Shown one piece after another: positions 4,938-23,219 of a stretch of 38,677 bases of DNA (within the stretch, counting starts at the first letter, position 1; every line of letters begins with the position of its first letter). The notes under the pieces were generated by a model that worked only from the letters and a program-made list of their open reading frames with translations, was not told the origin of the DNA and searched no databases. The position numbers and the translations under genes were made by a program. The DNA is from Chloroflexi bacterium CFX4 (GTDB taxonomy: Bacteria > Chloroflexota > Anaerolineae > Aggregatilineales > UBA2796), in the NCBI GenBank assembly GCA_021404685.1, contig QWHC01000004.1:1-38677 (forward strand), given 5' to 3'.

Positions 4938-4965
4938 CCACGCGCAATGCTGCACATTAGCAGGC

Positions 4966-6447: not shown

Positions 6448-6482
6448 GGCAGCGCAATGCGCTCAGGCGGAAGGAATGATCC

Positions 6483-7322: not shown

Positions 7323-7334
7323 GCGCGCAAATAT

Positions 7335-7343
7335 GCTATACTT
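7335..7343 (+). promoter_or_regulatory. Extended -10 promoter of the c-di-AMP-receptor/queA operon
   Basis: TGCTATACT (TG at 7335-7336, TATACT at 7338-7343), the same extended -10 style seen at other + strand genes here. Predicted start is near 7350, with a ribosome site TGGAG at 7372-7376 ahead of the ATG at 7388. Confidence 0.55.
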
Positions 7344-7387
7344 GTTCATCATGTGGCGCGCAAGCCCTTATGGAGATTATTAACGTT

Positions 7388-7714: not shown

Positions 7715-7732
7715 CAGTAGAAGCATTTCCTT

Positions 7733-8002: not shown

Positions 8003-9096
8003 GCCTTCCGACAGTTCATCCTGAAGACTTTGACTATGAACTGCCGCCAGAGCGCATCGCGCAGACGGCGGCAGAACCACGCGATTCGGCGCGGCTGTTG
8101 GTCATTCACCGCAGTAGTGGCGAATTGCAGCACCGCACCTTCCGCGATCTGCCCCAATACCTAACGCCCAACGATGCGCTCGTCCTCAACCAGACGCGAG
8201 TCATCCCGGCGCGCCTGCACGCCCGCAAACAGCCAAGCGGCGGCGCGGTGGAAATTTTGCTTGCTCAGAAGCTGGACGGGGAGCGTTGGTTAGCGCTGCT
8301 TGGCGGCAAGCGCCTGACGGTTGGCGCACGCCTGAGCGTGGAAGGCGCACCCAACCTTGAGGCGGAAGTGTTGGAAGTCCGCGAAGGCGCGCAGCGTGTG
8401 ATCCAATTCAGCGCGCCGATTGAGCCGCATCTGAACGCCATTGGTGAGATGCCATTGCCGCCTTATATTCACCAAAAACTGAGCGACCCTGAGCGCTATC
8501 AGACCGTCTACAGCCGCACGGAAGGCTCTGCTGCCGCACCAACTGCCGGCTTGCACTTCACGCCCGAACTGCTGCTGAGCATTCGTGCGCTGGGCGTGCC
8601 GATCCTCTACTGCACGCTGCATGTTGGCTTAGGCACTTTTCTGCCCTTGCGCGATGATCAAATCGCGGCGCGGCGCCTGCACCCTGAATATGCCGAACTC
8701 TCGGCGGAGGCAGCCCGTGCATTGAACGAGGTCAAGCTGCGCGGCGGGCGCATTTTTGCAGTCGGCACGACCACAGCACGCACCCTAGAGACTGCGGCGC
8801 TCTGTGCGCTTGGCACGCCACCCGAACGCCTACACTTAGCGGGCTATGAAGCGGCAGATCGCTGCCCGTGGCAGCCGCTGAGCGCCTTCCAAACGCAGAC
8901 CGAGCTATTTATCATGAATGGCTTTCAATTCCGTGCGGTGGATGCCTTAGTGACGAACTTCCATTTGCCTAAATCATCGTTGATGATGTTGGTAGGCGCT
9001 TTTGCTGGGCGCGAGCTGATCCTGCGCGCCTACCAAACAGCGGTGCGCGAAAACTACCGCTTCTACAGTCTGGGAGACGCAACCTTAATCTTGTGA
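7999..9096 (+). CDS. queA: S-adenosylmethionine:tRNA ribosyltransferase-isomerase
   Basis: Enzyme of 365 residues, normal for QueA, which transfers the ribosyl part of SAM to preQ1 in tRNA to make epoxyqueuosine. Recognised segments are the N-terminal DFDYELPPERIAQTAAEPRD, LNQTRVIPARL, GAVEILL, the central TEGSAAAPTAGLHFTPELL, and the C-terminal TNFHLPKSSLMMLVGAFAG. The start is the ATG at 7999, embedded in the stop of the preceding gene; a longer in-frame extension to 7924 runs through that gene and lacks conserved sequence. No other queuosine gene (tgt, queG, queC-F) is in the window. An FAD oxidoreductase gene follows 11 nt later. Confidence 0.96.
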   Translation: MSLPTVHPEDFDYELPPERIAQTAAEPRDSARLLVIHRSSGELQHRTFRDLPQYLTPNDALVLNQTRVIPARLHARKQPSGGAVEILLAQKLDGERWLALLGGKRLTVGARLSVEGAPNLEAEVLEVREGAQRVIQFSAPIEPHLNAIGEMPLPPYIHQKLSDPERYQTVYSRTEGSAAAPTAGLHFTPELLLSIRALGVPILYCTLHVGLGTFLPLRDDQIAARRLHPEYAELSAEAARALNEVKLRGGRIFAVGTTTARTLETAALCALGTPPERLHLAGYEAADRCPWQPLSAFQTQTELFIMNGFQFRAVDALVTNFHLPKSSLMMLVGAFAGRELILRAYQTAVRENYRFYSLGDATLIL

Positions 9097-9107
9097 GGAT
9101 GTGAACA

Positions 9108-10250
9108 ATGTCGGTTTCGGTTTGGCAGGCGGATGGCACACAGCCGATCCGTGAGGTGGATGTGTTGGTGATCGGTGCGGGTGTGGTTGGCTGCGCGGCT
9201 GCCTACTTTTTGCGGCAAGCAGGGCGCAATGTCGTGCTGATAGAGGCGCGAGACATTGCGCTTGGGGCAAGCGGGCGCAACGCCGGCTTTATGATCACCG
9301 GCTTGGATGTTTACTATCATCAGGCAATCGAACGCTATGGGCAGGCAATGGCGCGTGAATTGTGGGCGCTCTCGACGCGCACAGTGCGCTTTTGGCGCGA
9401 ATTTGCCAAAGATGGCACGGTGCCAATCCGTGAGTGCGGTGCGCTGCTGCTGGCAGAGAGCGCCGAAGAAGCCGTCGATCTGGAGCAGGCAGCGCGTGCG
9501 CTGAACGCCGACGGCATCCCTGTAGAGTTCCACAGCAGCGATCCACTCGGACGCGGCTATCACGCGGCAATTTTCCAGCCGTTTGATGGTATGGTGCAGC
9601 CAGTGGCGTTGGCGCAGGCAATCTTTGCCCAAAGTGGCGCGGAATTGATCGCCAACAATGAGGTGTACGCCATACGGCAGCTTGCGCCTGAGCGCGTGCT
9701 GGTCGAATCGCGCTTGTATCGCTTTCAGGCGCGTAAGGTGCTGCTCTGCACCAATGCCTATTCCGCGCTGATCGAGCCGTATTTCGTCGGTAAGGTCATC
9801 CCGACACGCGGGCAAGTGCTGGCAACCGCGCCACTGCCGCAGCCTGTGCTGGAAACATGCGGCTATAGCAACTATGGCTATATGTATTTCCGCCCAACCT
9901 TTGACGGACGCCTGCTCTTAGGCGGTGCGCGCCACCTGTTCAAGCCACAAGAGCAGGATACGCACGATGACCGCACCACTGAGGCGGTTCAGGTAGCGCT
10001 AGAGGCATACCTGCATCAGTACTTTCCCGAAGTGACAGCGCCTATCGAACGCCGTTGGGCAGGCATCATGGGCTTTAGCTGCGATGGGCTGCCGATGGTG
10101 GGCTGCCTGCCCGATAAACCAGATGTCGGCTTTGCGGTTGGTTTTACCGGGCATGGCTTATCGTTTGGTGCGGCAGCCGCCGAACGTGCCGTGGATCATC
10201 TGCTGAACGGCGCGCCGATTGGTGCGCTTGACGCAGCGCGGCTAGGCTAG
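9108..10250 (+). CDS. FAD-dependent oxidoreductase of the DAO family
   Basis: Protein of 380 residues. The N-terminal dinucleotide-binding motif VLVIGAGVVGCAAAYFL and LIEARDIALGASGRNAGF are characteristic of the D-amino-acid-oxidase superfamily, in particular gamma-glutamylputrescine oxidase, sarcosine oxidase and glycine oxidase relatives. The C-terminal part has RWAGIMGFSCDGLPMVG and GFTGHGLSFG, which close the FAD site. The likely reaction is oxidative deamination of a secondary or primary amine; resemblance is strongest to PuuB-like enzymes, but specificity cannot be fixed from sequence. It follows queA by 11 nt and may share its transcript. Its last 9 nt overlap the convergent sugar-kinase gene. 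A deoxyhypusine-synthase-like polyamine enzyme lies just beyond, a loose hint of amine metabolism. Confidence 0.88.
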   Translation: MSVSVWQADGTQPIREVDVLVIGAGVVGCAAAYFLRQAGRNVVLIEARDIALGASGRNAGFMITGLDVYYHQAIERYGQAMARELWALSTRTVRFWREFAKDGTVPIRECGALLLAESAEEAVDLEQAARALNADGIPVEFHSSDPLGRGYHAAIFQPFDGMVQPVALAQAIFAQSGAELIANNEVYAIRQLAPERVLVESRLYRFQARKVLLCTNAYSALIEPYFVGKVIPTRGQVLATAPLPQPVLETCGYSNYGYMYFRPTFDGRLLLGGARHLFKPQEQDTHDDRTTEAVQVALEAYLHQYFPEVTAPIERRWAGIMGFSCDGLPMVGCLPDKPDVGFAVGFTGHGLSFGAAAAERAVDHLLNGAPIGALDAARLG

Positions 10251-11190: not shown

Positions 11191-12276
11191 TCACGCGCCG
11201 ATGGGCTTGTGCTTTTCGTAGGCGGCGATCAGGCGTTCCAGTAGTGCCTCACGCCGTTCATAGAGCCGCTTCAGAGGGCGGCGCACACCCGCGCTAAGCG
11301 CATAGGCAGCCGCAATTGGGAAGGCGATGGTCGAGTCGGCATAGCAGACGATGCTATCGGGCAGTTGGTCGGGATCAATTTTGCCCCACGTCATCGCCTC
11401 TGAGGGCGTTGCGCCGCTTAAGCCGCCGGTATCAGGGCGTGCGTCGGTGAACTGCACGAAATAATCATGCCCTGCTTCAGGAATGCCCAAAATCTCTTGG
11501 ATTTGCGGCTCGGTTTGCAGGGCAAAGTTCTTTGGGCTGCCGCCGCCAAGGATGATCACAGCGCTGCGTCCGCCGCTTGCCTTCGCATCGTAGACGATGG
11601 CTGCCGTCTCATTCACATCATGTTCGACATCCATTTGCAGCGCATTGCCTTCCAGCCGCAGTGCTGCCACATTCATGCCCAGCGTCGAATCACCAGGGCT
11701 GGAGGTGTAAATCGGCACGCCGTTGGCATAGGCAGCGCTCAGGATCGAGCGGTGCGCCACACCAAGTTCATCCTCAATGGCGCGCACATATTTACCAAGC
11801 AGGTAGTGCATCTCGGCAGTTCCCATGCGCCGCTGGAATTCAGGCGCGACCATCACACGGCGCAAAAAGGCGTCCGATTCGAGCAGCACTTTTTGGTCAA
11901 AGAGGATGTCGTAAATGCGGATGATGTGCTGATCGCGCAGTTCCAGATCGTTGGTATTGGGCGTGGTGTTGAACAGCTCAAAGCCAAGCGAGAAGTGGAT
12001 ATCGTGGTAGAGGTTTGCGCCGGTGCTGATGATCCAATCTACCAAGCCGCTTTCGATGAGTGGCACAACGGTTGAGTAGCCCATGCCGGTTGGCGTCAGC
12101 GCGCCGGTGATGGTCAGGGCGACGGTCACTTCGGGCTGAAAGATTTTCTGGGTGAGGACGTGGCACGCCTCGCGCAGGCGTGCGGCGTTATAGGCGCTAA
12201 AATAGTCATCCACTAACGCCTGAACGGTCAGGTTGGGCGTAAGGGGCTTAGGTGTGATCTTGCGACCATAGGGCAT
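11191..12276 (-). CDS. Deoxyhypusine synthase-like protein
   Basis: Protein of about 361 residues with the deoxyhypusine synthase fold. Visible motifs are TITGALTPTGMG, STGANLYHD, PIYTSSPGDSTLGMN, IILGGGSPKNF (nucleotide-binding) and the active-site region SGATPSEAMTWGKID, in which the Lys of W-G-K-I corresponds to the catalytic lysine that forms the covalent aminobutyl intermediate. Bacteria lack eIF5A. Bacterial homologues are thought to transfer the aminobutyl group from spermidine or a related donor to a small acceptor such as putrescine (homospermidine formation) or an unknown substrate. I prefer ATG 12276 over GTG 12285, because GGAG is only two nt from the GTG. It is coupled to the PfkB gene downstream. 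Confidence 0.88.
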   Translation of the reverse strand: MPYGRKITPKPLTPNLTVQALVDDYFSAYNAARLREACHVLTQKIFQPEVTVALTITGALTPTGMGYSTVVPLIESGLVDWIISTGANLYHDIHFSLGFELFNTTPNTNDLELRDQHIIRIYDILFDQKVLLESDAFLRRVMVAPEFQRRMGTAEMHYLLGKYVRAIEDELGVAHRSILSAAYANGVPIYTSSPGDSTLGMNVAALRLEGNALQMDVEHDVNETAAIVYDAKASGGRSAVIILGGGSPKNFALQTEPQIQEILGIPEAGHDYFVQFTDARPDTGGLSGATPSEAMTWGKIDPDQLPDSIVCYADSTIAFPIAAAYALSAGVRRPLKRLYERREALLERLIAAYEKHKPIGA

Positions 12277-12465
12277 GGTAAACACTGCTCCGTGTGCGTT
12301 CCGATTTATCGGGCGGAGTCTAGCGCATTTGGGTGGGTGTGGCTAGTTAGGGTGAAGATCGTGCGGGCGGGATGCATGTTGCCTACTTGCGCAGCGCCGT
12401 CCAAACTGCCGGCACAGATAGCGCTGGCTGCCACGATATGGGCAAGGTCGCGTGTTTTCCATGCC

Positions 12466-12511: not shown

Positions 12512-13384
12512 TCAGTTGTGAAACGCCAACCTTTCGCCAGAGTCCGCCGTGAGCAAGCGTGCCAGCCCAGCATCACGCCCTAAATCTGCCATGATCTGCA
12601 CTTCATAAGCATAGTCCGCAGCGTATTGCACCACCGCCTGCCCACTCAGCCGAAAGCGCTCTAAGGTGAAAAGCGTCAGCGGCGCATCCAAAAGCAGCAC
12701 CACACGCCCTTCCTCATCCAACACAAAGCGCGCCCAATAAAGCTGTTCATTCACCGCCAGCAGATAGCGGCAGAGCGCCTCGTGCTGCCCACCTTGCCAC
12801 CAATCCGCCGCAGCCGCCGCATCAAGGATTGGGACTTGCCAATATGCCCACGCCGCATTGAAGGCAAGATAGACCTCAAAGGGACGCTCGGCTGCCTTGT
12901 AGTGAAAGTGATAATCGTTCAGGCTCAGCGGCTTGCGGAAGCCCCAACCCTCGTGTTTCAGCGCCTTGAAATACGTATCCAGCGTATGGCGCGGAAAGTA
13001 TTCAAGCGTCTCACCCCTTTCGGCAGGTTGGGAAGGCATCACAGGCTGGTCATGCTGGATAGCTGCTCGCCAGAGTGCCTCTACAGTCATGTGGATGTAG
13101 GTGCGCTCCAACTCTGCTAAGGGCAACTCTGCTTGCAGCAGCAACTGCCCTTGCGAATCGTAGGCATATTTACACAGATACAGCCGCCGCGCCGCCTGCA
13201 AATAGTGCGCTGCAGGCTGGGTTTGTGGCAAGGGCAGCGTGAAGTATAGCCAGCGCGTGTTCATGCCGACGTAAAGCGTGTGACCCTCGCGCTGAAGCTG
13301 CCAGCCTTGCTCCGCCGTGCTGATCTGCCAACCTTGTGTTGCCAGCGCAGAGAGCGCGGCGCTGATCGGCTGTAACTCATCCAT
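12512..13384 (-). CDS. Tandem YbjN-like (T3SS-chaperone-fold) protein
   Basis: Protein of 290 residues composed of two similar halves (about 1-140 and 150-285). Each has a pattern of alternating strands followed by LPLAELERTYIHMTVEALWRA or APLTLFTLERFRLSGQAVVQYA, resembling the YbjN / type III secretion chaperone-like fold, in which L-x-R/K-Y-x-x-D-x-x-G-x-V-x-L precedes the final helix. No catalytic residues or membrane segments are evident. YbjN-like proteins are thought to bind partner proteins, so it may be a substrate adaptor or chaperone for the conjugation machinery. It is the last gene of the tagging operon, only 5 nt after the E2-like gene, so translational coupling is likely. Function is inferred from position only. 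Confidence 0.7.
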   Translation of the reverse strand: MDELQPISAALSALATQGWQISTAEQGWQLQREGHTLYVGMNTRWLYFTLPLPQTQPAAHYLQAARRLYLCKYAYDSQGQLLLQAELPLAELERTYIHMTVEALWRAAIQHDQPVMPSQPAERGETLEYFPRHTLDTYFKALKHEGWGFRKPLSLNDYHFHYKAAERPFEVYLAFNAAWAYWQVPILDAAAAADWWQGGQHEALCRYLLAVNEQLYWARFVLDEEGRVVLLLDAPLTLFTLERFRLSGQAVVQYAADYAYEVQIMADLGRDAGLARLLTADSGERLAFHN

Positions 13385-13389
13385 GGTGC

Positions 13390-14118
13390 TTACTCGCTAT
13401 CTACCAATTCGATCAAGTTACCAAGTGCCTCTGAACGGTCGTTCGGTGTGCCGTCCACCCATTCCACAAAGCCGCCCACACGCCGCATAACCAACGGCGT
13501 GCTGGGTGCTTCACCGCTCAGCACGTCGCGCGCATCCACGGGGAAGCGGCTTTCGGGCTGCGCCTTCAGCCATGCCACCACGTTATGCGTCATGGCAAGC
13601 GGATCATCCATGTTATAGTGCCGATACTGCACCATACGCGCCGTCATCACCGCGATCTGATCGAGCGTGGCAGAGATCGGGAAGGCGAGATCGGCGTTGC
13701 AGATGAACGGCGCGTAGATGTTCGGGTGCCAAATCGGCGTCAGCCACACAAAGCGCGGCGGCTTCACAGGATAATCCACATTGAAGATGACTTCCATCGC
13801 GTGGTTGGTCGTCTCCACGATGTTGCCCGCCTGATCTTGGCGTAGCCCAACGCAGTTAAAGACCAACAGGTATTTCTCCGGCGGCTGATTCGGAAATTTT
13901 TGGCTGAATTGCTCTGGCGTCATGAAACCGCGCAAACCATCGTTAATGGTTTGGTTGAACTCTTGGCGCGTCATGGCACGCCCAAGATAGGCGCTTGCCT
14001 CATCAGCGCTCAGGTCGGCGCAATAGACCTCAATCAGGCTCTTTGAACCGCGCACGGACTGAATGCGCTCAAATTCGTGCTTCAAACGGTTATTGCGGCG
14101 GTCGGTATAGCTTGGCAT
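13390..14118 (-). CDS. E2-like ubiquitin-conjugating (UBC-fold) protein
   Basis: Protein of 242 residues with a recognisable UBC core. YPVKPPRFVWLTPIWHPNI (about 116-134) matches the E2 signature of eukaryotes (Y-P-F-x-P-P followed by T-x-I-x-H-P-N-I). The cysteine Cys140 in A-P-F-I-C-N lies at the position of the E2 thioester cysteine, and MDDPLAMTHNVVAWL corresponds to the conserved N-x-D-D-P-L segment and last core helix. A roughly 80-residue N-terminal extension and a 55-residue tail flank the core. H-P-N is retained; the Asn expected to stabilise the oxyanion is therefore present. It lies between the E1-like gene (27 nt) and the YbjN-like gene (5 nt). It should accept a thioester-linked modifier from the E1 next door; the modifier itself is not visible here. 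Confidence 0.88.
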   Translation of the reverse strand: MPSYTDRRNNRLKHEFERIQSVRGSKSLIEVYCADLSADEASAYLGRAMTRQEFNQTINDGLRGFMTPEQFSQKFPNQPPEKYLLVFNCVGLRQDQAGNIVETTNHAMEVIFNVDYPVKPPRFVWLTPIWHPNIYAPFICNADLAFPISATLDQIAVMTARMVQYRHYNMDDPLAMTHNVVAWLKAQPESRFPVDARDVLSGEAPSTPLVMRRVGGFVEWVDGTPNDRSEALGNLIELVDSE

Positions 14119-14145
14119 CCTATGGTTTACCTCTCTTGCTTCTAC

Positions 14146-15384
14146 TCAACGAGACCACGCAGCAAATTGTGCATCAGCATCAGCGCTTAGCTCGAACCAA
14201 AAAATACACTCAGCGCCTTGCAGGGTGGCTGCTACTTGCAGCACCGCCAACGGCGGCACACCAAGCTGCGCCAACGGTACAGCAGCAGCAGGCGATTCAG
14301 CGCTCAGCGCCAACCGACTAAGAATGCTGGGCAGGCGCGGCACACCGCACGTTGGGCAGGTTGCGCCGTCAGGCATCACGGCATCGTAAGGGCGGTAAAC
14401 GGGCGTGGTCACCTCGCACGTTGGGCAGTAAAAACGGCTGACGATCTCTAATTCGGGCAGCAAGGCAGCCTTCTGAGCGCCTTCAGCGGCAAGTAGGGGC
14501 GCAATTGCCGCATAGAAGCCGCCCACCGTTAGATCAGCAGCGCGCAAAGGCAGCTCTGTGACAAGCGCACGCCCTTGATTATGGCTGAAGCAATCCTCGC
14601 GTTCGGTGTAGGTCAGCAGCGATGTGCTGTAGGTGTGTCCATTCACGTAAATGCCCTTGCCGGCTGGCACTGCCATGCCATGCAGCAGCTTCACAGCCTC
14701 TTGCACCTGCCACGCCGCCACAATGGAAGCGCTAGTCGGCGTGGTTGGCTGCCTGCCGTCCTGCAAATCTTCAGGGCGCAGCAGCGGGCAGCGGTAGCGC
14801 ACATTGACCAGATCGTAATCTGCCTCCGTCATGGTGCATTCATAGCACGCGCCCTGATCAGGCACAAAGACGCGGGCGATGCCCATCAGCACCTCAATGG
14901 CGCCATCAATCCACGCCACGCCATAGCGCCAGCAGGCACGGTTGACGGCAAGGCGCGCCGCACGGTTATCCAAACAGCCAATCACGACATCCACGCGGCG
15001 GTAAACACCTTGCCCAAGCGCTTGCGTAACATCACCGTGAAAGGTTGCCACGCGCACATCAGGGTTGATCTCGCGCAGGCGCGCCGCGGCAACGTCCACC
15101 TTGCGCTTGCCGCTATCCTCAGCGCGATATAGCACCGAACGCGAGAGGTTCGCCGCCTCTACACTGTCAAAGTCTGCCAATAAAATATGCCCAACACCCA
15201 ACAAGGCGAGGTTTTTCAGCACTTCGTTGCCAAGCGCACCGGCGCCCACCACCATGACTCTAGCATTCCGCAGCTTAGCCTGATCCCACCAATCAATCAG
15301 CTTGAGCGCCGCGTAGCGGTCGGCGCTGGGCGCGCTGATCTCAATCAGCCCGTCGCCCTCGGTCAACGCAATCAGGTCGCTCAT
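14146..15384 (-). CDS. E1-like activating enzyme (ThiF/MoeB fold)
   Basis: Protein of 412 residues. The adenylation domain shows VMVVGAGALGNEVLKNLALLG (GxGxxG near 47-52), DFDSVEAANLSR (71-82) with the conserved Asp and Asn-x-x-Arg, and IGCLDNRAARL (Asp139), as in MoeB/ThiF/E1 enzymes. C180-x2-C183 plus CPTC (343-346) or C320-x2-C323 could bind structural zinc. Cys199 in V-R-Y-R-C-P-L-L lies in the crossover region and is my candidate for the thioester cysteine. The C-terminal 90 residues extend beyond MoeB length and may recruit the E2. Its ATG overlaps the stop of the RING-like gene (ATGA), so the two are translationally coupled, and E2 follows 27 nt later. With an E2 and RING next to it, a role in protein modification is more likely than cofactor sulfur transfer. 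Confidence 0.88.
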   Translation of the reverse strand: MSDLIALTEGDGLIEISAPSADRYAALKLIDWWDQAKLRNARVMVVGAGALGNEVLKNLALLGVGHILLADFDSVEAANLSRSVLYRAEDSGKRKVDVAAARLREINPDVRVATFHGDVTQALGQGVYRRVDVVIGCLDNRAARLAVNRACWRYGVAWIDGAIEVLMGIARVFVPDQGACYECTMTEADYDLVNVRYRCPLLRPEDLQDGRQPTTPTSASIVAAWQVQEAVKLLHGMAVPAGKGIYVNGHTYSTSLLTYTEREDCFSHNQGRALVTELPLRAADLTVGGFYAAIAPLLAAEGAQKAALLPELEIVSRFYCPTCEVTTPVYRPYDAVMPDGATCPTCGVPRLPSILSRLALSAESPAAAVPLAQLGVPPLAVLQVAATLQGAECIFWFELSADADAQFAAWSR

Positions 15385-16181
15385 TGCGCCGCTTCCTCGT
15401 CGAACTCACCGTTTTCCTCGCCCAGATAGGGCAGCATGTTAGGCATGAACACAGAGCGCAGCAGTTTGCCGACATCATACTTGCCGCAAACAGGGCAGTT
15501 GCCCAAACTCACCCAACATTCAAGGTGAAAGGCTGCCCCACACGCAGAGTTCGGGCAGTATGCCACATGCTGCCCCGCCTGAAAAGGTTGTGCATCTACG
15601 CCGGGCGTGCCAGCAGCGCAGCGTTTGCTCTGTGTGACGACAGGGCTATTGGCGGCAAGTTGCTCGATCAGGATGCCGCGCCCTGCCAACAGGCGCTTGA
15701 GTGTGGCGCGAATCGGGTACAGGCAGCCGGGATTAGAGCAGAACTCATGCTCAAACCAGCACTCTTTGTGGTGCGGCACGCCGCAGCGCGGACAAATGAC
15801 CACCTCGTCCGCGCTGCGGTAGTCCAGCCGACAGACTGGGCAGCGCTTGCCGATCAGCGCTGACCCAACGGCAACTTCTTGCAGGGTCATCTCCCAAAAG
15901 AGCATCTCCATATCGCCGATTTGCAGGCGGCTGCCCTGCCGCAGCACACGCAGACCAACCACACGGCGTCCGTTCACGCGCACACGCGGATCGCCGCGCA
16001 GGTTGACCAGCAGCGGCACTTGGTAAACTTTGGCACGGGTGATGATCGCCTGTGGTTTGCCCTCGCCCGTCCCAAAGCGTGCGCCGCCGTTTTCGGCAAC
16101 GCGCAGCAGCACAGGATCAGCATCCGAGAAGGTGTATTCGCCGAGCGTGCCATCAGCGTTTTGAAAGGTCAGGACGGGCAT
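15381..16181 (-). CDS. FHA-like plus RING-like putative E3 protein
   Basis: Protein of 266 residues. The first 100 residues end in VRVNGRRVVGLRVLRQGSRLQIGDMEMLFWE, written here in two parts by feature: N-G-R-R-V and R-L-Q-I-G-D are typical of the second half of an FHA-like beta-sandwich. Two binuclear zinc-binding units follow. The first has C114-x2-C117, C130-x2-C133, H138-x2-C141, C148-x4-C153. The second has C209-x4-C214, H219-x2-C222, and C229-P-V-C232, with C188 as a possible extra ligand. This spacing is RING/treble-clef-like. I use the ATG at 16181 (GAGG 7 nt upstream). Located directly before E1 and E2, it is the natural E3 candidate, recruiting substrates perhaps through a phospho-peptide surface; ligase activity is inferred. 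Confidence 0.78.
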   Translation of the reverse strand: MPVLTFQNADGTLGEYTFSDADPVLLRVAENGGARFGTGEGKPQAIITRAKVYQVPLLVNLRGDPRVRVNGRRVVGLRVLRQGSRLQIGDMEMLFWEMTLQEVAVGSALIGKRCPVCRLDYRSADEVVICPRCGVPHHKECWFEHEFCSNPGCLYPIRATLKRLLAGRGILIEQLAANSPVVTQSKRCAAGTPGVDAQPFQAGQHVAYCPNSACGAAFHLECWVSLGNCPVCGKYDVGKLLRSVFMPNMLPYLGEENGEFDEEAAQ

Positions 16182-16216
16182 CACAACACCTCACAGTCTG
16201 CTAAAAGGGAATATCC

Positions 16217-17056
16217 TCAAAAAGATGTCGCATCGGCGCGGGCGTCGCCTTCTGGGTGCGGTGCAGCAGGCGGTGCTTCCGCCTTCCTGACAGGCGGCTC
16301 AACCTGATCCTCAGGCGCGGTCAGCAGCTTGTCGAGCGCTTCTTGCGCTTCCCAACGGATAACAATATCAGCATCGTTCAGCAAACCGATCAGCGTATCT
16401 ATGGCTGTTTCGCCGCCCAAGTTGCCAAGCGCGCTCACCGCCGCCAAGCGTACCGACTGTTCCCATGCTGAATCAAGGAAATGCGCCACCAAGCCCAAAT
16501 GCTCATCCGCCCTGCCCACTTTGCCCAAACCACTCAGGGCGTGCCGCACGATGGCAGGACTGTGCTGCTCATAGTTTTGCAGCGTTTGGGTCAGGTGCGC
16601 CAGCATTTCGGCAGCAGCATCCTGATCCTGCACATTTTGCGAGTCTGTGTTTGGGCGTGGTGCAGGGCGCTGCCCGAACAAGCCGCCAAACAGACCAAAT
16701 GGGCGCGGTGGCGTATTTTCGGGCGTCTCGGAAGCGGGCGAAGATGCGCCCATGGGTGGGCGTGCGCCTAAAGAGGCAGGCGACCCGAAGCGATAGGTTG
16801 CCGCGCTGCTTGCTGATGATGGCGGCGAAGGTGGCGAAGGGATACCACGCGGCGCACGCCCAAATATGCTTGTTTGGCGCAGTGGCACAGTTTCTGGCGA
16901 AGCAGACTCAGCCGATTGCTCTTCCGCACTCGGCTCGGCAGGCGTTTGGGATCGGCGGCGGGCAAGCGATGCCAGCCATTCCATCGGATCAGCGCCACCG
17001 CGTTGGCTCTCTGGTGGTGTGTCTTCTGGGTTGGGCGGTGTGGGGCGGTCAGTCAT
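16217..17056 (-). CDS. HEAT-repeat protein with long disordered N-terminus
   Basis: Protein of 279 residues. Residues 1-145 are Pro/Ser/Thr-rich and probably disordered, with one ordered short motif A-D-P-M-E-W-L-A-S-L-A near 22-32. Residues about 145-248 contain HEAT-like (PBS-lyase type) repeats, for example VRLAAVSALGNLGGETAIDTLIGLLND followed by VIRWEAQEALDKLL (split here as two repeats), giving two to three helical pairs. The tail is again low in complexity. Such proteins act as binding platforms. In this operon, 17 nt after pafA and about 35 nt before the RING gene, it sits between the Pup half and the E1-E2-RING half and could be a physical adaptor between them. No enzymatic motif is visible. 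Confidence 0.75.
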   Translation of the reverse strand: MTDRPTPPNPEDTPPESQRGGADPMEWLASLARRRSQTPAEPSAEEQSAESASPETVPLRQTSIFGRAPRGIPSPPSPPSSASSAATYRFGSPASLGARPPMGASSPASETPENTPPRPFGLFGGLFGQRPAPRPNTDSQNVQDQDAAAEMLAHLTQTLQNYEQHSPAIVRHALSGLGKVGRADEHLGLVAHFLDSAWEQSVRLAAVSALGNLGGETAIDTLIGLLNDADIVIRWEAQEALDKLLTAPEDQVEPPVRKAEAPPAAPHPEGDARADATSF

Positions 17057-17073
17057 AGCGCACCTCTCAAAGC

Positions 17074-18510
17074 TCAGCTAGATAGCTTCCCATCATTCAG
17101 CAAGGCGTAGGTATCGGGCGAGAAGAAGGCGAATGGGTCATGCAGTTCCACGCGCTGACCGCCTACACGCACCTCATTCCAATTTTTCACCTCAACGCGC
17201 CCACTCGTCCGCCGCGCAGAAGCAATCACCTCGCCGCGCACCCGCGCACGGGTATAAGGCGGTGGCGCAGCCTGCGCTATCCGCACCGATTCAACGTCCC
17301 ATAAAGTGTCCAGCGCATCGGCGCCTTGTTGGCTTCTCAGCAGTTTGTAGAACAGGCTCTGGGTCGGATCAACATTGTGGTACTGGATGTCCAGTTCTTG
17401 CAGCTTATAGCGGATTGGATGTTTATCCAGATCGGGCGTATCCCAGCTTAGCCCGTTGCTCGTCAAGAGGCGATCTAGCACGCTTTTCTTGGTGATCCAG
17501 TCAATTTTGCCGAACAGCCGCGAAGGCGCGTTCTGTAAAGCGTCGAGCGTTTCTGACCACAACCCGATCAGTTCGCGCTCTTCTTCAGAGGTTGGGTAGC
17601 GCTCGGCATAGCGCAGCACCTGCTCTAGGTAAAGGCGCTGAACATCAATCGCCGTCATCTGGCGTCCGTCGTAAAGCGGCAGCAGCGCCGTGCAGCTTGG
17701 ATCGCGGGAGACGGCGTGCATGGCGCGCACAGGGTCTTTCAAGTGCGGAATCGCGCCGATCTCAAGGTCTTCCAGCAGGCGCAGCAGCAAGCCAAAGGTG
17801 CCAACCTTCAGGAAGGTGCCATAGCCGGACATGCAGGCATCGCCCAAGATCAAATGCAGGCGACGGTAGCCGCCTTCGCTGAACGGCTCATTTTCGCGCC
17901 CCAAGTTGAACAAACCGCGCATATCGCGTGTATCCCGCGAGACGACGGCATTCATAAAATCGGCGCGCTGCCCAAGCTGAAAGGCAAAGCCTTGCTCGCC
18001 GCGCCGCCCTAAGCCAACCCGTCCCGGCGCACAAAGGATCAGGCGCGTTGCCAAGAACGGCACAAGGTAGCGAATCGAAAGGCGCAGATAGTCCTCATGA
18101 TCCAGCCATGCCGTCTCGCGTTCTGCCATGTAGTTTTCGTGGCAGCCATAGGTGTTGCCGTGAACATCCACATTGTTCTTGACGATCAGGAATCGCCCAC
18201 GAAAGCCATCCACACGCAGCGATTCCTGTGCGCTGGGCAGCAGCAGCGCCATCAGCGCATCGGCAGCCTTATCGTAGAGTGCAATCTCGCGTGCGCTGCG
18301 GCATTCTGGGTGCGCCCACTCCGCATGACCAACATCGTGGTAGAACTTTGCACCGTTGGCGATATACATGCTCTCATTCAGCCCGATTGCCTCTGTGAGG
18401 GCATGGCGCAGCGCACTAACGAGGGTTTCCTTCGTCGGGTCGCTGGTGCCTTTTTCGGAAAGGAAAGACACGCCGTATTCCGTCTCTAGGCTGAAGATTC
18501 GCTCTCGCAT
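17074..18510 (-). CDS. pafA: PafA-type Pup ligase
   Basis: Protein of 478 residues, close to PafA length, with the carboxylate-amine ligase (glutamine-synthetase-like) fold. FSLETEYGV near the N-terminus supplies metal-binding Glu9. NGAKFYHDVGHAEW carries Asp59, matching the catalytic Asp of mycobacterial PafA in Y-V-D-V-G-H; the usual H-P-E-Y is H-A-E-W here. Further motifs are DVHGNTYGCHENY, LGQRADFMN, RRLHLILGDACMS, KIDWITKKSVLDRLL and TRARVRGEVIASA, the last two being PafA-like rather than Dop-like. PafA uses ATP to join the C-terminal Glu of Pup to substrate lysines. AGGGAG precedes the ATG. It lies 69 nt after pup, where prcB-prcA would intervene in Actinobacteria. Confidence 0.93.
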   Translation of the reverse strand: MRERIFSLETEYGVSFLSEKGTSDPTKETLVSALRHALTEAIGLNESMYIANGAKFYHDVGHAEWAHPECRSAREIALYDKAADALMALLLPSAQESLRVDGFRGRFLIVKNNVDVHGNTYGCHENYMAERETAWLDHEDYLRLSIRYLVPFLATRLILCAPGRVGLGRRGEQGFAFQLGQRADFMNAVVSRDTRDMRGLFNLGRENEPFSEGGYRRLHLILGDACMSGYGTFLKVGTFGLLLRLLEDLEIGAIPHLKDPVRAMHAVSRDPSCTALLPLYDGRQMTAIDVQRLYLEQVLRYAERYPTSEEERELIGLWSETLDALQNAPSRLFGKIDWITKKSVLDRLLTSNGLSWDTPDLDKHPIRYKLQELDIQYHNVDPTQSLFYKLLRSQQGADALDTLWDVESVRIAQAAPPPYTRARVRGEVIASARRTSGRVEVKNWNEVRVGGQRVELHDPFAFFSPDTYALLNDGKLSS

Positions 18511-18544
18511 GGCGCTCCCTTTGGCTATGGCTTGATCAGGGTGT

Positions 18545-18566
18545 GGGACGGCGGTGATGCCGTCCC
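18545..18566 (-). other. Intercistronic hairpin between pup and pafA
   Basis: Perfect 8-bp stem GGGACGGC (18545-18552) / GCCGTCCC (18559-18566) with a 6-nt loop, 13 nt downstream of the pup stop codon. On the - strand no T-run follows, so it should not be a strong terminator. A stabilised 3' end of the upstream message could favour more Pup than PafA. Confidence 0.6.
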
Positions 18567-18579
18567 GTTTGGTGTGCGG

Positions 18580-18819
18580 TTATTCGCCCGTCTCTTGGCG
18601 GAAACGGCGCACAAATTCCTCAGAGTTGGTGGTGCGGAGTTCTGGGCGCTGCTCAGACTCGCCGCCAATCGTTTCGACAGGCACATCTTCGCCGCCGAAA
18701 AAGTCGCCTAGCACGTCATCAATCACGTCACGGGCAGGCGCGGCAGGCTCCTGCGCCAAGCCGCCCGCTTCGCTGCTGATGCTCTGCTGACCGCGTGTGA
18801 TCTGATCTTGATCGCTCAT
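18580..18819 (-). CDS. pup: Pup-like protein modifier (ends Thr-Gly-Glu)
   Basis: Small acidic protein of 79 residues. Its C-terminus TTNSEEFVRRFRQETGE matches the Pup family pattern (T-N-A-E-D-F-V-R-x-Y-x-Q-K-G-G-Q/E), and the preceding IDDVLGDFF fits the Pup helix. Glu is already the last residue, so no Dop deamidation should be needed before ligation. Differences from canonical Pup: Thr-Gly instead of Gly-Gly before the end, no lysine anywhere in the protein (so no Pup chains), and an extra 15-20 acidic or Gly-rich residues. GGAGGG, 8 nt before the ATG, is formed by the last codons of dop, whose stop lies 2 nt upstream. The neighbours dop, pafA and arc confirm the identity. Confidence 0.92.
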   Translation of the reverse strand: MSDQDQITRGQQSISSEAGGLAQEPAAPARDVIDDVLGDFFGGEDVPVETIGGESEQRPELRTTNSEEFVRRFRQETGE

Positions 18820-18821
18820 CT

Positions 18822-20699
18822 CTAGTACCCTCCATAACTATAGCTATCGTAGGTGCCATAACTGCGATAGTATGGCTGCGTAATCGGCTTCAAGGTACGG
18901 ATTAGCCCTTGTAAGTCGGTCACATCTGCCAAGAGCGCCTCTACCTCGGCGCGTGTGCCGCTCATCGGATCGGGCATGGCAAGGTAAACATCCTGTGTCA
19001 TGTATGGCTCGCGGAAGCTGACTTCCGACCAGTCGGCGTGTGCAACATGCTCACCAAAGCGCCCTAGCAGCGTGCCACGCAGATAGGCGCGTGTATCTGC
19101 TGGCGGCGTGCTGATGTAATGTTCGATCTCGGCATCGCTCACAAGGCGATCTACAGCGCCACTTGCCTGCAAACGGTAGAAAATGCCGTTGCTGCGCGCA
19201 TCCGTGCCGCGCCGAATATCATGATACTCCAGATCGAGTCGGCGCAGGCTGAAGTAAATCTCGCGCTGCCGCCAGTAATCGGCATAGCTGAGTTTGTGGC
19301 GCGCCATATAGTCCTCGATGTACGTGCCACGCACGCCATGCAGCCGCTTGATTGCCGCTTGAATAGCCTCAGGGCGATCACCGATCACCTCACGAGTCTG
19401 ATCGAGTGTTAGCTCAATGGGCAATTCCCAAAGTGCCACTTGCGACCAATCAGCGCGTTGGCTGGTCAGGTAGCGCTCCAGCAGGTTGCGCTTGATCGCC
19501 CAGTCCAAGCGCGTGCTGAGCAGACGCCAATCGCGCCCGATCTTATCAAGTGTATCTGCCCACACGCTCAGCACTTCGCGGTAGGCTGCCAGCACGTCAT
19601 CGGCAAATTCGCTCGCCTTTGCCTCCACATAGTCACGCGCAGCAGCGTAGAACTGACGCTGCATCTCCAACGCGGTGATGCTGCCGCCGCTATCGAGTTG
19701 GAGCGGCTGGCTGAAAGTCAAATCGCGGGAGATGAACTGATAGGCATCAATCGGATCATCAAGGGTGAAGTTGAGCGCAATTGCGTTGTCCTCAAGCATC
19801 ATCAGGATGATCTGCGTGGTGCCAATCTTCAGGAACGTGCCGTAGTCCGCCATGTTGGCATCGCCCAGGATGACGTGCAGGCGGCGGTATTCATCGCGTG
19901 CGGCGTGCGGCTCATCACGGGTGTTGATCAACGGACGGTTGTGCGTTGTCTGCAAGCCGATCAACGTTTCGAAGAAATCGGCGCGCTGTGTGAGCTGATA
20001 GCCATTCGCCGCACGCTCATTTTCCGAGCCAACCTTGCCCGATCCACAGAAGATGGCACGGCTGGTCAGGAACGGGATCAGGACGCGCAGCGTGCGGTGA
20101 AAGCGCCGCATGATCAGGTCTTCGTAGAGGGCAGCCGAGAGCAGATAGTTCTCGTGGCAGCCGTAACTGTTGCCCTTGTGATCGCTGTTGTTCTTATAGA
20201 TGGCGATCTCCTCACCGGCGCCCAGCACAGCACGCGCATTGGCACGCTGCCGCGAACGCTCTACGATCAGTTCGCCAGCTTTATCGGCAGCCACCACAGT
20301 GCGCGGCAAGCGTGTTTCCGCCGTGCAGTATTCGGGATGGGCGTGGTCAATATAGAAGCGCGAACCGTTCGGCAGCATCAGGCTTGAATAATCCCAACCG
20401 TAGGTTGCCATGTAGGTTTCGGCACGGACGGGCTGCCCAGAATCGAGCATTTCCACCAACGGCTCACCGGAGTCCAGCAGGCGAATATCTTGCGTTTCGG
20501 GCAGGTTATAAGCAGCCTGCTGTGCGCGGCGCACCTCACGCAGGCGCGCCTCTTTGAGCTTATGGCGGCGCAGCAGCGCGCCTGCCTCCTCACATTGTCC
20601 CAGCACCAAGCGCGAGGCAACAAACGGGTTGGATGCCGCCGCGTTCAGCACAAAAATGCCGTATTCCGTCTCAATCCCGATCAGTTTTGGCGTCGTCAA
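18822..20699 (-). CDS. dop: Dop-type depupylase/deamidase, enlarged
   Basis: Protein of 625 residues, about 120 longer than mycobacterial Dop. LIGIETEYGI gives metal-binding Glu10; NGSRFYIDHAHPEY carries Asp118 at the position of the Dop nucleophile, and D-H-A-H-P-E-Y is the Dop form of the motif. Then come SDHKGNSYGCHENYLL, GYQLTQRADFFE, RPLINTRDEPHA, RRLHVILGDANMADYGT and PADTRAYLRGTLLGRFG. Extra sequence lies between residues 15 and 105 (including the Dop-loop region) and around 430-490 before the conserved LDLEYHDI. The start is an unusual TTG, with GGAG 8 nt upstream and no in-frame ATG nearby. Since Pup here ends in Glu, the main job is probably depupylation. It ends in S-Y-G-G-Y and overlaps the pup ribosome site. 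Confidence 0.9.
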   Translation of the reverse strand: MTTPKLIGIETEYGIFVLNAAASNPFVASRLVLGQCEEAGALLRRHKLKEARLREVRRAQQAAYNLPETQDIRLLDSGEPLVEMLDSGQPVRAETYMATYGWDYSSLMLPNGSRFYIDHAHPEYCTAETRLPRTVVAADKAGELIVERSRQRANARAVLGAGEEIAIYKNNSDHKGNSYGCHENYLLSAALYEDLIMRRFHRTLRVLIPFLTSRAIFCGSGKVGSENERAANGYQLTQRADFFETLIGLQTTHNRPLINTRDEPHAARDEYRRLHVILGDANMADYGTFLKIGTTQIILMMLEDNAIALNFTLDDPIDAYQFISRDLTFSQPLQLDSGGSITALEMQRQFYAAARDYVEAKASEFADDVLAAYREVLSVWADTLDKIGRDWRLLSTRLDWAIKRNLLERYLTSQRADWSQVALWELPIELTLDQTREVIGDRPEAIQAAIKRLHGVRGTYIEDYMARHKLSYADYWRQREIYFSLRRLDLEYHDIRRGTDARSNGIFYRLQASGAVDRLVSDAEIEHYISTPPADTRAYLRGTLLGRFGEHVAHADWSEVSFREPYMTQDVYLAMPDPMSGTRAEVEALLADVTDLQGLIRTLKPITQPYYRSYGTYDSYSYGGY

Positions 20700-20732
20700 A
20701 AAAGTTTCTCCATCCTACCTGTTCTGCACTTA

Positions 20733-23219
20733 CTACGCGCCGTTAGGCTGCGCGTGCGGCTGTGCCGCCTGATACGGCTTGCTCTTTTCCATGCCCCACG
20801 GGTCTTCTTCGGTTGCCTCTAAGAAGACCCTCACGGCACGAATATCGCCCTGCCGCGCCGCGCCCATCCCAACATTTTCGTTCAGCCAGTGGGCAATGAA
20901 CTGCTCAGCATTCTCGCGGAATTCATCGGCGAGTGCTGCGCGCAGATCGGGCAGGGTGATGCCAACCTTGCCGCTGCCCGCCGCGATCTGACGCTTGAGG
21001 GCAGTCTTTTTAGCGCGAGAGACTAGGCTCATCAGCACCGCACCACTGGAAAAATCACGCAGTGGAAAGACTAAACGCTCATCCGAGCCGTTCTGCGCCC
21101 GCACGGACGTTTCGAGGCGGCTGGTTGCGCTGTACAGCACGGCAAGCGTCTCGATGATGAGCGCCTCTGCCAGTTGTTCACGGCGCGCCACCTCACTGAT
21201 CAGTGCGTGCGCGTCAGCATTTTCTGCGATCAGGGCGCGTAAAGGTGCGCCGTGTGCCTCACGCGGATCAAGTGCCTTGCGCGCATCATGCTTGTCCGGC
21301 AGTGCCGCAAGCAGTGCTGCGCGTGTGCCTTCGGGCAGCAGTGCGCCAAAGAGTTCAATGCAGCGGCGCGTTGTTGCCGCCTTGAAAGTGATTGACCGAC
21401 CGTATGCCTCTGGCGCTTGCGGCAGATCAGCATCGCTTAAGGGTAGATCAGGCGTTAGGTAGAGCGACATAATCTGCAAAGCTGCCTCTTGCGTTGGACG
21501 GTTGATCTTGATCTTGACATCAAGGCGACCTGGGCGCAAGATTGCAGGATCGATCATATCAGAACGGTTGCTGGCGCCGATGATGATGACGTTCTCGCTG
21601 CCTTCCACGCCGTCCATTTCGGCAAGGAACTGCGGCACAATGGTCGTCTCCACGTCCGACGAGCGCCCGCTGCCGCGTGTGCGGAACATCGCTTCCATCT
21701 CATCAAAGAAGATGACGACAGGCGTGTAGAAAGAAGCACGCGCCTTGGCGTCCTCAAAAATCTTACGAATGCGCGACTCTGTCTCACCGACGTATTTGTT
21801 GAGCAGTTCAGGACCTTTGACGTTCAAGAAATAGCTGCGGATGCCATCCTGACGGCGCACCACTTCATTAATGCGCGCCAACGCCGCGCTCGGATCGTCT
21901 AAATCCACCTCGTTCAGGCGCAGTTCTTCGGCAATCTCGAACAAGTTCGGCACGGCATCGCCGCCGCGCAGCGTACGGAACGCTGCCAGTGCCTCTGCAT
22001 CCTGCGGATTGGCGCGCAACTTCAAATAGATTTCGATCAACTGCGCCAACTTGCCCAAGTAGGCGCGAATGCTGAGCGTGAGCGAGTTGGCAACCGCTTT
22101 GGCGATCAGCGTTTTGCCGCAGCCGGGCGGTCCGTAAAGCAAAATGCCTTTGGGGCGCTCTAGCTGGAACTCATCAAACAGGTTGCGGTGGATGTAGGGC
22201 AGCTCAATGGCGTCCCGAATGGTGACGATCTGATCATCCAAGCCGCCGATGTCTTCGTAGCGCACGTCTGGCACTTGTTCAAGGGTTAGGCTGCCGCTTT
22301 CTTGCGCGGGCAGCTTCTCAAAAGCGATGCCGATGCGCGGATCAACGCGCACCACATCACCAATCTCAACCGTGCTGTGGAAAAGCTGATCGCTGATTTC
22401 GACAACAGCCTCTGTGTTGCCAACGCGCACCTGTAAGCGCGGACGAATCTTGGCGATGGCGTGCTTGCCGCTCGGATCAATTTGGACAATATCGCCGCGC
22501 TGAAGCGTCTCGGCAAGGGCAGGATCGCACAGCACGCTGAACTTTTCGCCGCTGAGCCACTGCACGCGCAAGCTGACGCCCTCAGGCGCAGAGAGCAGGC
22601 GCGCCGCGTTATCTGGACTGAGGATGGCGAGGACTTCGGCGGTTTCGCCGCGCAAAAAGTCTTGCCGAATGCCGACCACATTTCGCGCACGGTTCAGCAC
22701 AACCTGCTGCCCTTCGCGCAGCTGGTCAATCGGCAGATCGGGCGCGGCAAGTTTCACCTCTAGGCGCTGCCCGTTATAGCCAACGATCACGTCGCGCCCA
22801 GTCACAAGGATGCCGTGCAGTTCGTCGCGCAGGGTCTCTAGGCGCTGGCGGTCATCCGGCGTAATGCTGCGTTGAATGGCATCATTCAGCACCTCTGCCA
22901 GCATCTCCCAGATCAGGTCATAGTCGCCTTCCAGTTCGACCATCTGCCCGTTTTCGTCTACAATCTGCGGCTTGGGGCGCGGCGGGCAAACACCTAAGAA
23001 CACGCCATATTCAAGCGGCGCGCTGCGTGCTTCTTCAAGATCGCGCTGCGTTTTGATCAGCAGTTCGCGCAGGCGTTGAATGCCGCTCAGCTTTCCAACA
23101 AAGCCGAGCAGTTCCATCAGGCGGGTGCGTTCATCGGGCGGCGGCGGTGGTGCGGCGCGCAGTTTCTCTTTGACGAGGGTCTCTAACAGGTGGATCAGGG
23201 TTTCAGTGTCCGTCGGCAT
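20733..23219 (-). CDS. arc: ARC/Mpa-like AAA+ proteasomal-type unfoldase
   Basis: Protein of 828 residues. It has an N-terminal helical, probably coiled-coil part (about 3-75) that in Mpa binds Pup, OB-fold-like domains (about 135-300), and a AAA+ domain with Walker A GPPGCGKT (363-370), pore loop K-Y-V-G (475-478), Walker B VVIFFDE (501-507), sensor GASNRSDM and arginine-finger region LRPGRLD. About 65-80 residues are inserted between Walker A and the pore loop (roughly 382-460) where Mpa has a short linker. The C-terminus ends in N-G-A, without the G-Q-Y-L or HbYX tail needed to dock on a 20S core. First gene of the operon, 33 nt before dop. Likely unfolds pupylated proteins without a proteasome partner. 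Confidence 0.93.
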   Translation of the reverse strand: MPTDTETLIHLLETLVKEKLRAAPPPPPDERTRLMELLGFVGKLSGIQRLRELLIKTQRDLEEARSAPLEYGVFLGVCPPRPKPQIVDENGQMVELEGDYDLIWEMLAEVLNDAIQRSITPDDRQRLETLRDELHGILVTGRDVIVGYNGQRLEVKLAAPDLPIDQLREGQQVVLNRARNVVGIRQDFLRGETAEVLAILSPDNAARLLSAPEGVSLRVQWLSGEKFSVLCDPALAETLQRGDIVQIDPSGKHAIAKIRPRLQVRVGNTEAVVEISDQLFHSTVEIGDVVRVDPRIGIAFEKLPAQESGSLTLEQVPDVRYEDIGGLDDQIVTIRDAIELPYIHRNLFDEFQLERPKGILLYGPPGCGKTLIAKAVANSLTLSIRAYLGKLAQLIEIYLKLRANPQDAEALAAFRTLRGGDAVPNLFEIAEELRLNEVDLDDPSAALARINEVVRRQDGIRSYFLNVKGPELLNKYVGETESRIRKIFEDAKARASFYTPVVIFFDEMEAMFRTRGSGRSSDVETTIVPQFLAEMDGVEGSENVIIIGASNRSDMIDPAILRPGRLDVKIKINRPTQEAALQIMSLYLTPDLPLSDADLPQAPEAYGRSITFKAATTRRCIELFGALLPEGTRAALLAALPDKHDARKALDPREAHGAPLRALIAENADAHALISEVARREQLAEALIIETLAVLYSATSRLETSVRAQNGSDERLVFPLRDFSSGAVLMSLVSRAKKTALKRQIAAGSGKVGITLPDLRAALADEFRENAEQFIAHWLNENVGMGAARQGDIRAVRVFLEATEEDPWGMEKSKPYQAAQPHAQPNGA

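What the first reader, a model, noticed from the sequence alone, without database searches (positions are those of the whole stretch)
12512..23219. A single operon joining pupylation (ARC-Dop-Pup-PafA) to a ubiquitin-type E1-E2-RING triad
Seen: nine - strand genes with gaps of 2-69 nt or 4-nt overlaps, encoding ARC, Dop, Pup, PafA, HEAT, FHA/RING-like, E1-like, E2-like and YbjN-like proteins. Known: pupylation and ubiquitin-type ligation are unrelated chemistries (Gln-synthetase-like ligase versus adenylation and thioester relay). Inference: the two are coregulated parts of one protein-fate system, with the HEAT or YbjN proteins as adaptors. I know of no characterised system of this kind.
Basis: partly seen in the sequence, partly recalled or inferred. 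Interest (0 to 1): 0.93.

Follow-up and report, generated by a model that had tools for sequence, protein, structure and literature searches.

The report
Twin tagging operon: Pup plus ubiquitin-like
A Chloroflexota lineage keeps the genes of two unrelated protein-tagging systems, bacterial pupylation and a ubiquitin-like E1-E2-RING set, side by side in one conserved gene cluster, which suggests that both tags are likely put on the same target proteins; the pairing was mentioned in one sentence in print in 2020, and I found no study of what it does.

Summary
The pairing is not a chance neighbourhood: the order recurs in sister species and, at 28-50% protein identity, in Chloroflexi bacterium OHK40, and 16 of 81 long-form E2 relatives lie on a contig with exactly the length of one carrying a PafA relative (shifted-length control: mean 0.35, maximum 2). 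In sisters the cluster continues with a ubiquitin-like protein (YukD family, ending MTAG), a JAB peptidase and a WD40 giant; in the window's own genome these sit on another contig. No 20S proteasome gene was found in the five genomes where the joined cluster is seen, nor in a sixth of the genus. HEAT belongs to PafA (one protein in OHK40). My reading: two tagging cycles acting on shared targets, with ARC as an unfoldase that works without a proteasome core. Against a wider rule: in 400 Chloroflexota genomes the two systems co-occur no more than chance. The linkage itself is prior art: one sentence in Kaur et al. 2020 (PMC7159879) reports a Ubl system coupled to a Pup system in Thermofonsia and Planctomycete bacteria. 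Shared targets and tag order are inference; nothing was tested at the bench.

The parts
20733..23219 (-). ARC/Mpa-type AAA+ ATPase (828 aa); carries an insert of roughly 75 aa between Walker A and B that OHK40 shares; C-terminus ...AQPNGA
   Evidence: TIGR03689 4e-145 (below its cut-off), OB domains PF16450/PF17758; alignment with L007, L009, OHK40
18822..20699 (-). Dop, depupylase/deamidase (625 aa, TTG start)
   Evidence: PF03136 1.7e-137, TIGR03688 1.3e-118 (below cut-off); PDB Dop 5lrt 9e-102; GIETEY and YIDHAHPEY motifs
18580..18819 (-). Pup, the small modifier (79 aa) ending FRQETGE
   Evidence: no Pfam hit, TIGR03687 E=0.025; C-terminus E in window and L009, Q in L007 and L010, IGGE in OHK40
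17074..18510 (-). PafA, Pup ligase (478 aa)
   Evidence: PF03136 3.3e-103; PDB 4b0t PafA 4e-58 and Dop 4b0r 2e-67
16217..17056 (-). HEAT-repeat protein with a long low-complexity N-terminus; separate gene here, part of PafA in OHK40
   Evidence: HEAT_2 5e-10; PafA-HEAT in L011; HEAT domains in 41 of the 120 PafA proteins listed (counted by hand)
15381..16184 (-). FHA-fold domain plus two zinc-binding RING-like fingers: predicted E3 (267 aa, GTG start)
   Evidence: Prok-RING_1 6e-16, two stretches; ligand Cys/His invariant in 5 of 5; FHA fold
14146..15384 (-). E1-like ThiF adenylating enzyme (412 aa) with C-terminal Cys-pair region
   Evidence: ThiF 1e-55; GAGALG, D71, D73, N79, R82, K95, D139 and Cys199 invariant in 9 of 9; PDB E1 enzymes from 2e-31
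13390..14118 (-). E2-like enzyme (242 aa), long form with an insert at about residues 36-76; HPN at 131-133, catalytic-type Cys140
   Evidence: UQ_con 3e-6; HPN and Cys140 invariant in 20 of 20 long forms (against short forms the Cys column shifts); PDB E2s by profile 4e-7 and by fold, best E 5e-5
12512..13384 (-). YbjN/CesT-like protein (290 aa), last gene of the window's part of the cluster
   Evidence: YbjN PF10722 1e-6; conserved at this place in L007-L011

Best explanation
This is one gene cluster that carries the genes of two protein-tagging systems, pupylation (ARC, Dop, Pup, PafA) and a ubiquitin-like conjugation set (E1, E2, FHA-RING, with its Ubl and JAB peptidase on another contig in this genome), which are predicted to act on the same target proteins. 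Shown by sequence: the parts, their catalytic-type residues, the conserved order, correlated divergence of PafA and E2, the separate location of Ubl-JAB-WD40 in this genome, and no detectable 20S core. Inferred: the E1 adenylates the MTAG C-terminus of the Ubl and passes it to the E2, and the FHA-RING protein picks phosphorylated targets; JAB removes the Ubl. PafA, steered by its HEAT module, adds Pup to the same targets and Dop removes it. ARC binds Pup and unfolds or dismantles the doubly marked protein or complex, without a proteasome core. The YbjN/CesT-like protein and the WD40 giant would be chaperone and scaffold. Which tag comes first, or whether one tag recruits the other's enzymes, is open.
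For: Same order in L007 and L009, in L010 from within ARC (contig end), and in OHK40 (L011) with PafA and HEAT as one protein; 4 of 4 other same-genus genomes in the set carry the E2. Ubl and JAB follow YbjN in 4 of 4 genus loci (L008 shows only E1 to JAB, its contig being 3.7 kb) and Ubl-CHAT, Ubl-JAB and JAB genes follow it in OHK40. In the window's genome Ubl (97%), JAB (74%) and a WD40-type gene keep their order on contig C28. 16 of 81 long E2s share an exact contig length with a PafA relative (null mean 0.35, max 2); E2 and PafA distances of 20 pairs correlate, r=0.57, 0 of 20,000 permutations as high. No PF00227 in 6 of 6 genomes: five with the joined cluster in view plus G003. Catalytic-type residues kept; FHA fold.
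Against: No experiment and no transcript data. In the window's own genome the Ubl part is not in the cluster. In the phylum the two systems co-occur about as chance would give: 40, 14 and 2 (both) of 400 genomes. Linkage does not prove shared targets. The contig-length match is indirect evidence of co-location, and 65 of 81 long E2s had no match in the capped list of 120 PafA proteins. FHA phosphopeptide-binding residues were not tested. PafA has S in place of the first G of the GhExE motif. All genomes are drafts.
Confidence: 0.6

Rival explanations
1. Two independent systems that share a locus for regulation or transfer only: each tag has its own targets and fate.
For: Each system occurs alone: 17 stand-alone E1-Ubl-E2 loci without Pup-side matches in the DNA held, and 20 PafA/Dop stretches from 19 genomes without a match to any gene of the Ubl side. 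The window's genome keeps the set in two places. Co-occurrence in the phylum is at chance level.
Confidence: 0.27
2. A conflict (anti-invader or cell-suicide) system: the tags mark invader or self proteins and recruit a protease effector, as Kaur et al. suggest for related Ubl systems. This can be true together with the best explanation.
For: OHK40 carries a Ubl fused to a CHAT protease next to the cluster; the printed remark stands in a paper on conflict systems; a TIR-like gene (by eye) lies beside the moved Ubl.
Against: No CHAT gene was seen in the window's cluster or in the Pfam lists of the sister's Ubl and JAB (the WD40 giant's list is cut at 25 of 68); the Ubl is 89-97% identical among sister species, unlike a fast-evolving defence part; 5 of 5 genomes of the genus that were searched have the E2. 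No defence library (PADLOC) scan was run.
Confidence: 0.3
3. The E1-E2-RING half works on Pup itself (activates or transfers Pup), since no Ubl lies in the window.
For: In the window Pup is the only modifier gene found.
Against: A cognate MTAG Ubl follows the same genes in 4 of 4 genus loci and exists on C28 in this genome; Pup ends in E or Q, which fits PafA/Dop chemistry.
Confidence: 0.03

Closest known systems
[quoted passage not shown] passages seen)
   Same: Same pairing, named from 'Thermofonsia' and Planctomycete bacteria; the PafA relative P0026 (79% identity) is labelled Candidatus Thermofonsia Clade 1 bacterium.
   Different: In the passages seen it is one sentence without gene list or function. 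Added here: gene order, separate Ubl-JAB locus, PafA-HEAT fusions, no 20S core found, correlated divergence and wider co-location. I did not see a planctomycete locus.
Actinobacterial Pup-proteasome system (Iyer et al. 2008, PMC2588565, parts 1-2 of 3 read)
   Same: Dop/PafA-family genes with Pup (G[EQ] end) and a proteasomal ATPase in one neighbourhood.
   Different: No 20S subunits found in six genomes; ARC with an insert and without a recognisable proteasome-docking tail (motif recalled); joined to Ubl-side genes.
Bacterial RING-type Ubl systems with YukD-like Ubl, E1, E2, JAB (Burroughs et al. 2011; recalled and seen as a citation in PMC7159879, not read)
   Same: All components present if contig C28 is counted; stand-alone cousins in 17 Chloroflexota loci.
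   Different: Different order (RING-E1-E2-YbjN-Ubl-JAB against E1-Ubl-E2-JAB-JAB-RING, the latter read in five of the 17), long-form E2, FHA on the RING protein, joined to Pup genes.
FtsH-ternary conflict systems (PMC7159879, passages)
   Same: A tri-ligase Ubl set with JAB.
   Different: Ubl and E2 are separate genes here; no vWA, MoxR or FtsH partner was recognised in the cluster.

Membership tests
Pupylation system | Pup ending G[EQ] encoded next to a PafA-family gene | tested here: met
   window TGE; sisters TGE/TGQ; OHK40 IGGE; profile hit only E=0.025
Pupylation system | PafA and Dop of the carboxylate-amine ligase family with active-site motifs | tested here: met
   PF03136 and PDB hits, NCBIfam below its cut-offs; GIETEY in Dop, SLETEY in PafA, so the first G of GhExE is S in PafA
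Pupylation system | ARC/Mpa AAA+ partner | tested here: met
   TIGR03689 484 bits against a cut-off of 505, clear but below cut-off; OB domains over cut-off
Pup-proteasome system | 20S proteasome alpha/beta subunits | tested here: not met
   PF00227: 0 of 6 genomes (G000-G004, OHK40); the search rings in 10 of 14 controls; genomes are drafts
Bacterial RING-type Ubl conjugation system | beta-grasp Ubl with exposed C-terminal Gly | tested here: met
   YukD 1e-11 for the sister's Ubl; MTAG end in 5 of 5 including C28; not in the window
Bacterial RING-type Ubl conjugation system | E1 with nucleotide-binding motif and conserved Cys; E2 with HPN and Cys | tested here: met
Bacterial RING-type Ubl conjugation system | RING-type E3 and JAB peptidase | tested here: met
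   PF14446; sister's JAB PF01398 1.5e-4, 22.0 bits just below the cut-off of 22.5; JAB of this genome on C28 at 74% identity to it
Bacterial RING-type Ubl conjugation system | Ubl is conjugated to proteins | not testable with these tools
   needs biochemistry
Coupled Ubl-Pup system of Kaur et al. 2020 | Ubl-conjugation genes coupled with Pup-conjugation genes in Thermofonsia-type Chloroflexota | tested here: met
   their gene list was not available to compare
FtsH-ternary conflict system | Ubl fused to E2 (and to EAD1) | tested here: not met
   separate Ubl and E2 genes
FtsH-ternary conflict system | vWA, MoxR and FtsH partners in the operon | tested here: inconclusive
   none among the nine window proteins, Ubl or JAB by Pfam; the WD40 giant's list is cut at 25 of 68 families and flanks were not scanned

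The most novel reading that the evidence does not exclude
A bacterial two-key protein-fate switch: an FHA-RING ligase reads a phosphorylated target and adds a ubiquitin-like tag, the HEAT-guided Pup ligase adds Pup to the same target, and only the doubly tagged protein is pulled apart by an ARC unfoldase that has no proteasome, so that two chemistries invented independently are wired as an AND gate.
Probability: 0.2. Interest if true: 0.9.

Novelty: new member of a known kind. Interest (0 to 1): 0.66.

Why it matters
Pupylation and ubiquitin-type ligation are two unrelated protein-tagging chemistries and are usually treated as alternatives. A conserved cluster that holds both, with a Ubl 89-97% identical between sister species and an unfoldase but no proteasome core found, makes two open questions testable in one place: what pupylation does without a proteasome, and whether bacterial Ubl tags feed a degradation or disassembly route. 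The remark of 2020 suggested a link to degradation; the apparent lack of a 20S core here argues that the simplest form of that idea needs changing.

Tried and rejected
Chance neighbourhood: rejected by conserved order and by the shifted-length control. Pup as substrate of the E1-E2: set aside once the Ubl was found. General co-occurrence in the phylum: not seen; 40 of 400, 14 of 400 and 2 of 400, expectation by chance about 1.4; in one of the two, G312, the genes lie on different contigs and the E2 match covers model positions 68-190 only. Searches of 396 genomes of the window's class and 158 of OHK40's class found an E2 match over the full length of the model only in G000 and OHK40; the other 48 and 6 matches cover the conserved core only. 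ARC as a marker: TIGR03689 rang in 399 of 400 genomes, none over the cut-off, so it said nothing. Plasmid tblastn for the Nostoc PafA gave 2 actinobacterial records. PF05639 (Pup) found nothing in the own genome although Pup is there, being too divergent. The neighbourhoods of the metagenomic E2/PafA relatives and of the two Nostoc PafA proteins could not be read (no scans left or allowed), hence the contig-length test.

The genome-contig scan works from two peptide patterns, so relatives lacking both are missed. Searches for the coupling in print; I opened passages of PMC7159879, PMC8195603, PMC11354881 and PMC7203096 (none of the terms in the part held) and parts 1-2 of PMC2588565; PMC7159879 is the only report I found. 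The fold matches are weak to moderate (E2 best 4.8e-5, FHA best 2.2e-3; both models pLDDT 72), so they support the fold class only.

Full report
Observation. Nine minus-strand genes at 12512-23219 encode ARC, Dop, Pup, PafA, a HEAT protein, a RING protein, an E1, an E2 and a YbjN-like protein, with spacings of 33, 2, 69, 17, 32, -4, 27 and 5 nt. Homology is strong for Dop, PafA and E1, clear for ARC, RING, HEAT and YbjN, and marginal by single-sequence profile for E2 and Pup. The E2 is supported by 20 long-form homologues that all keep HPN and the Cys seven residues on and by profile and fold matches to solved E2s. Pup is supported by place and by its end: E in the window and L009, Q in L007 and L010, IGGE in OHK40, the G[EQ] signature that Iyer et al. 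2008 name for Pup (PMC2588565, parts 1-2 of 3 read). The N-terminal part of the RING protein is FHA-like by fold; its phosphopeptide-binding residues were not examined.

The missing modifier. No ubiquitin-like match was found in the window (tblastn). In the sister loci L007, L008, L009 and L010 the gene after YbjN is a 93-aa YukD-family Ubl ending MTAG, followed by a JAB peptidase; in L007, L009 and L010 a WD40/HEAT giant follows (Pfam run on the L009 copies). In the window's genome these genes lie on contig C28: Ubl 2586-2864 at 97% identity, JAB 3015-4172, and an open frame 4169-9259 whose start reads like the WD40 giant (by eye), about 2.5 kb inside the contig. The glycosyltransferase upstream of ARC is shared with L009, while the homospermidine-synthase-like and PfkB genes downstream of YbjN gave no match in the sister loci held, so the break is downstream of YbjN and the window shows a split form. 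A mis-join in the draft assembly is not excluded.

Conservation. In a set of 41 genomes (own plus 40 relatives) 4 of 4 other genomes of the genus have the E2 at 85-88%; among the remaining 36 there is one partial 30% match. A pattern-based scan of 84,980 species genomes with the E2 alignment gave 22 loci. Four are the genus (their contig lengths equal those of G001-G004); L011 is Chloroflexi bacterium OHK40, with ARC 48%, Dop 43%, PafA 41%, RING 31%, E1 50%, E2 38%, YbjN 28% identity in the same order, a Pup ORF between Dop and PafA, PafA and HEAT as one protein, and then Ubl-CHAT, Ubl-JAB and JAB genes. The other 17 are stand-alone loci with E1, Ubl and E2 in 17 of 17 and no Pup-side match in the DNA held; a RING match was seen in 10 of 17, several contigs being short.

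Spread. A protein search with PafA listed 120 of 812 relatives (the window's own among them) and one with the E2 alignment 120 of 811. Two rows without a contig length (P0130, P0194) were dropped. Of 81 long-form E2s (190 aa or more, P0204 counted as short), 16 share the exact length of a contig carrying one of the 119 PafA proteins; shifting lengths by 1-50 bases either way gives a mean of 0.35 and a maximum of 2. Of 38 short-form E2s one matches (control mean 0.13, maximum 2), within chance. For these 16 pairs plus the window, L007, L010 and OHK40 (L009 was not used), E2 and PafA distances correlate with r=0.57 (0 of 20,000 permutations as high); without the window, L007, L010 and P0005, r=0.58 (1 of 20,000). 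HEAT domains stand in 41 of the 120 PafA proteins listed, OHK40's among them, and two also carry an acyl-carrier domain (counted by hand); names include Nostoc and Victivallales, but I could not see whether those carry the Ubl half.

Against a general link. In 400 Chloroflexota genomes PF03136 is in 40 and the E2 family in 14; both are in G000 and G312 only, in G312 on different contigs. Of the other 39 PafA genomes I read 20 stretches (4.6-19.9 kb) from 19; tblastn with the window-type and Ubl-side proteins at 1e-3 found only PafA/Dop matches, and 19 of 20 have a Pup-like ORF ending PTPQPGG[EQ]. So the joined form is one lineage of PafA and E2, not a rule of the phylum.

No proteasome. PF00227 found nothing in G000, G001-G004 and OHK40, while the same search rings in 10 of 14 control genomes. 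G000 is estimated 94.75% complete and G001-G004 88-94%, so a single absence would be weak; 0 of 6 is firmer. ARC shares with OHK40 an insert between Walker A and B and lacks the C-terminal docking motif that I recall for proteasomal ATPases. Hence unfolding or dismantling without a 20S core is the likely use of ARC; whether another protease takes over is open.

Mechanism. I commit to two tagging cycles on shared targets: Ubl by E1-E2-FHA-RING with JAB as eraser, Pup by PafA-HEAT with Dop as eraser, ARC as reader. Parts and residues are shown; shared targets, order of tags, FHA recognition of phosphorylated proteins, and the roles of YbjN and WD40 are inferred.

Prior work. Kaur et al. 2020 (PMC7159879; [quoted passage not shown] P0026, 79% identical to the window's PafA, is named from a Candidatus Thermofonsia Clade 1 bacterium, so this is very probably the same lineage. 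I therefore file the finding as a new member of a kind noted in print, uncharacterised as far as I found, with new anatomy. Searches for further reports; the library lacks most subscription papers.

Noticed in passing
L033 (window genome contig C18):93-908 and 896-1318: A second set in the same genome: a protein with a Ubl-like N-terminus (E 6.5e-5 to the Ubl) and an FHA domain (7e-13), followed by a small Prok-JAB protein (6e-19).
   Followed up: partly
L032 (window genome contig C28):1-2067: A TIR-like STAND-type gene (by eye, no family search) lies on the opposite strand right beside the relocated Ubl-JAB-WD40 genes.
   Followed up: no
window 20733-23219: ARC has an insert of roughly 75 residues between Walker A and Walker B, also in OHK40; function unknown.
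   Followed up: partly
L011:11664-13379: OHK40 encodes a Ubl fused to a CHAT protease (3.7e-12) right after the joined cluster.
   Followed up: partly
L017:3504-8100: This stand-alone E1-Ubl-E2 locus is preceded by a dynamin-like GTPase, a 400-aa protein with a faint ADP-ribosylglycohydrolase match and a CAP-domain protein; similar frames seen by eye in other such loci.
   Followed up: no
L082-L101: Other Chloroflexota have a minimal Dop-Pup-PafA locus without an ARC match nearby; PF00227 was found in 1 of 12 PF03136-positive genomes of this kind that were searched.
   Followed up: partly
P0034, P0037 (named Nostoc), P0084 (named Victivallales), P0043 (unnamed): PafA relatives at 47-51% identity, some with extra domains (HEAT, acyl-carrier); their neighbourhoods could not be read.
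   Followed up: no
window 11191-12285: A homospermidine-synthase-like gene (NF001980, over cut-off) lies where sister species have the Ubl gene.
   Followed up: partly
P0234 and P0110: One short-form E2 and one PafA relative share contig length 9181; may be chance.
   Followed up: no
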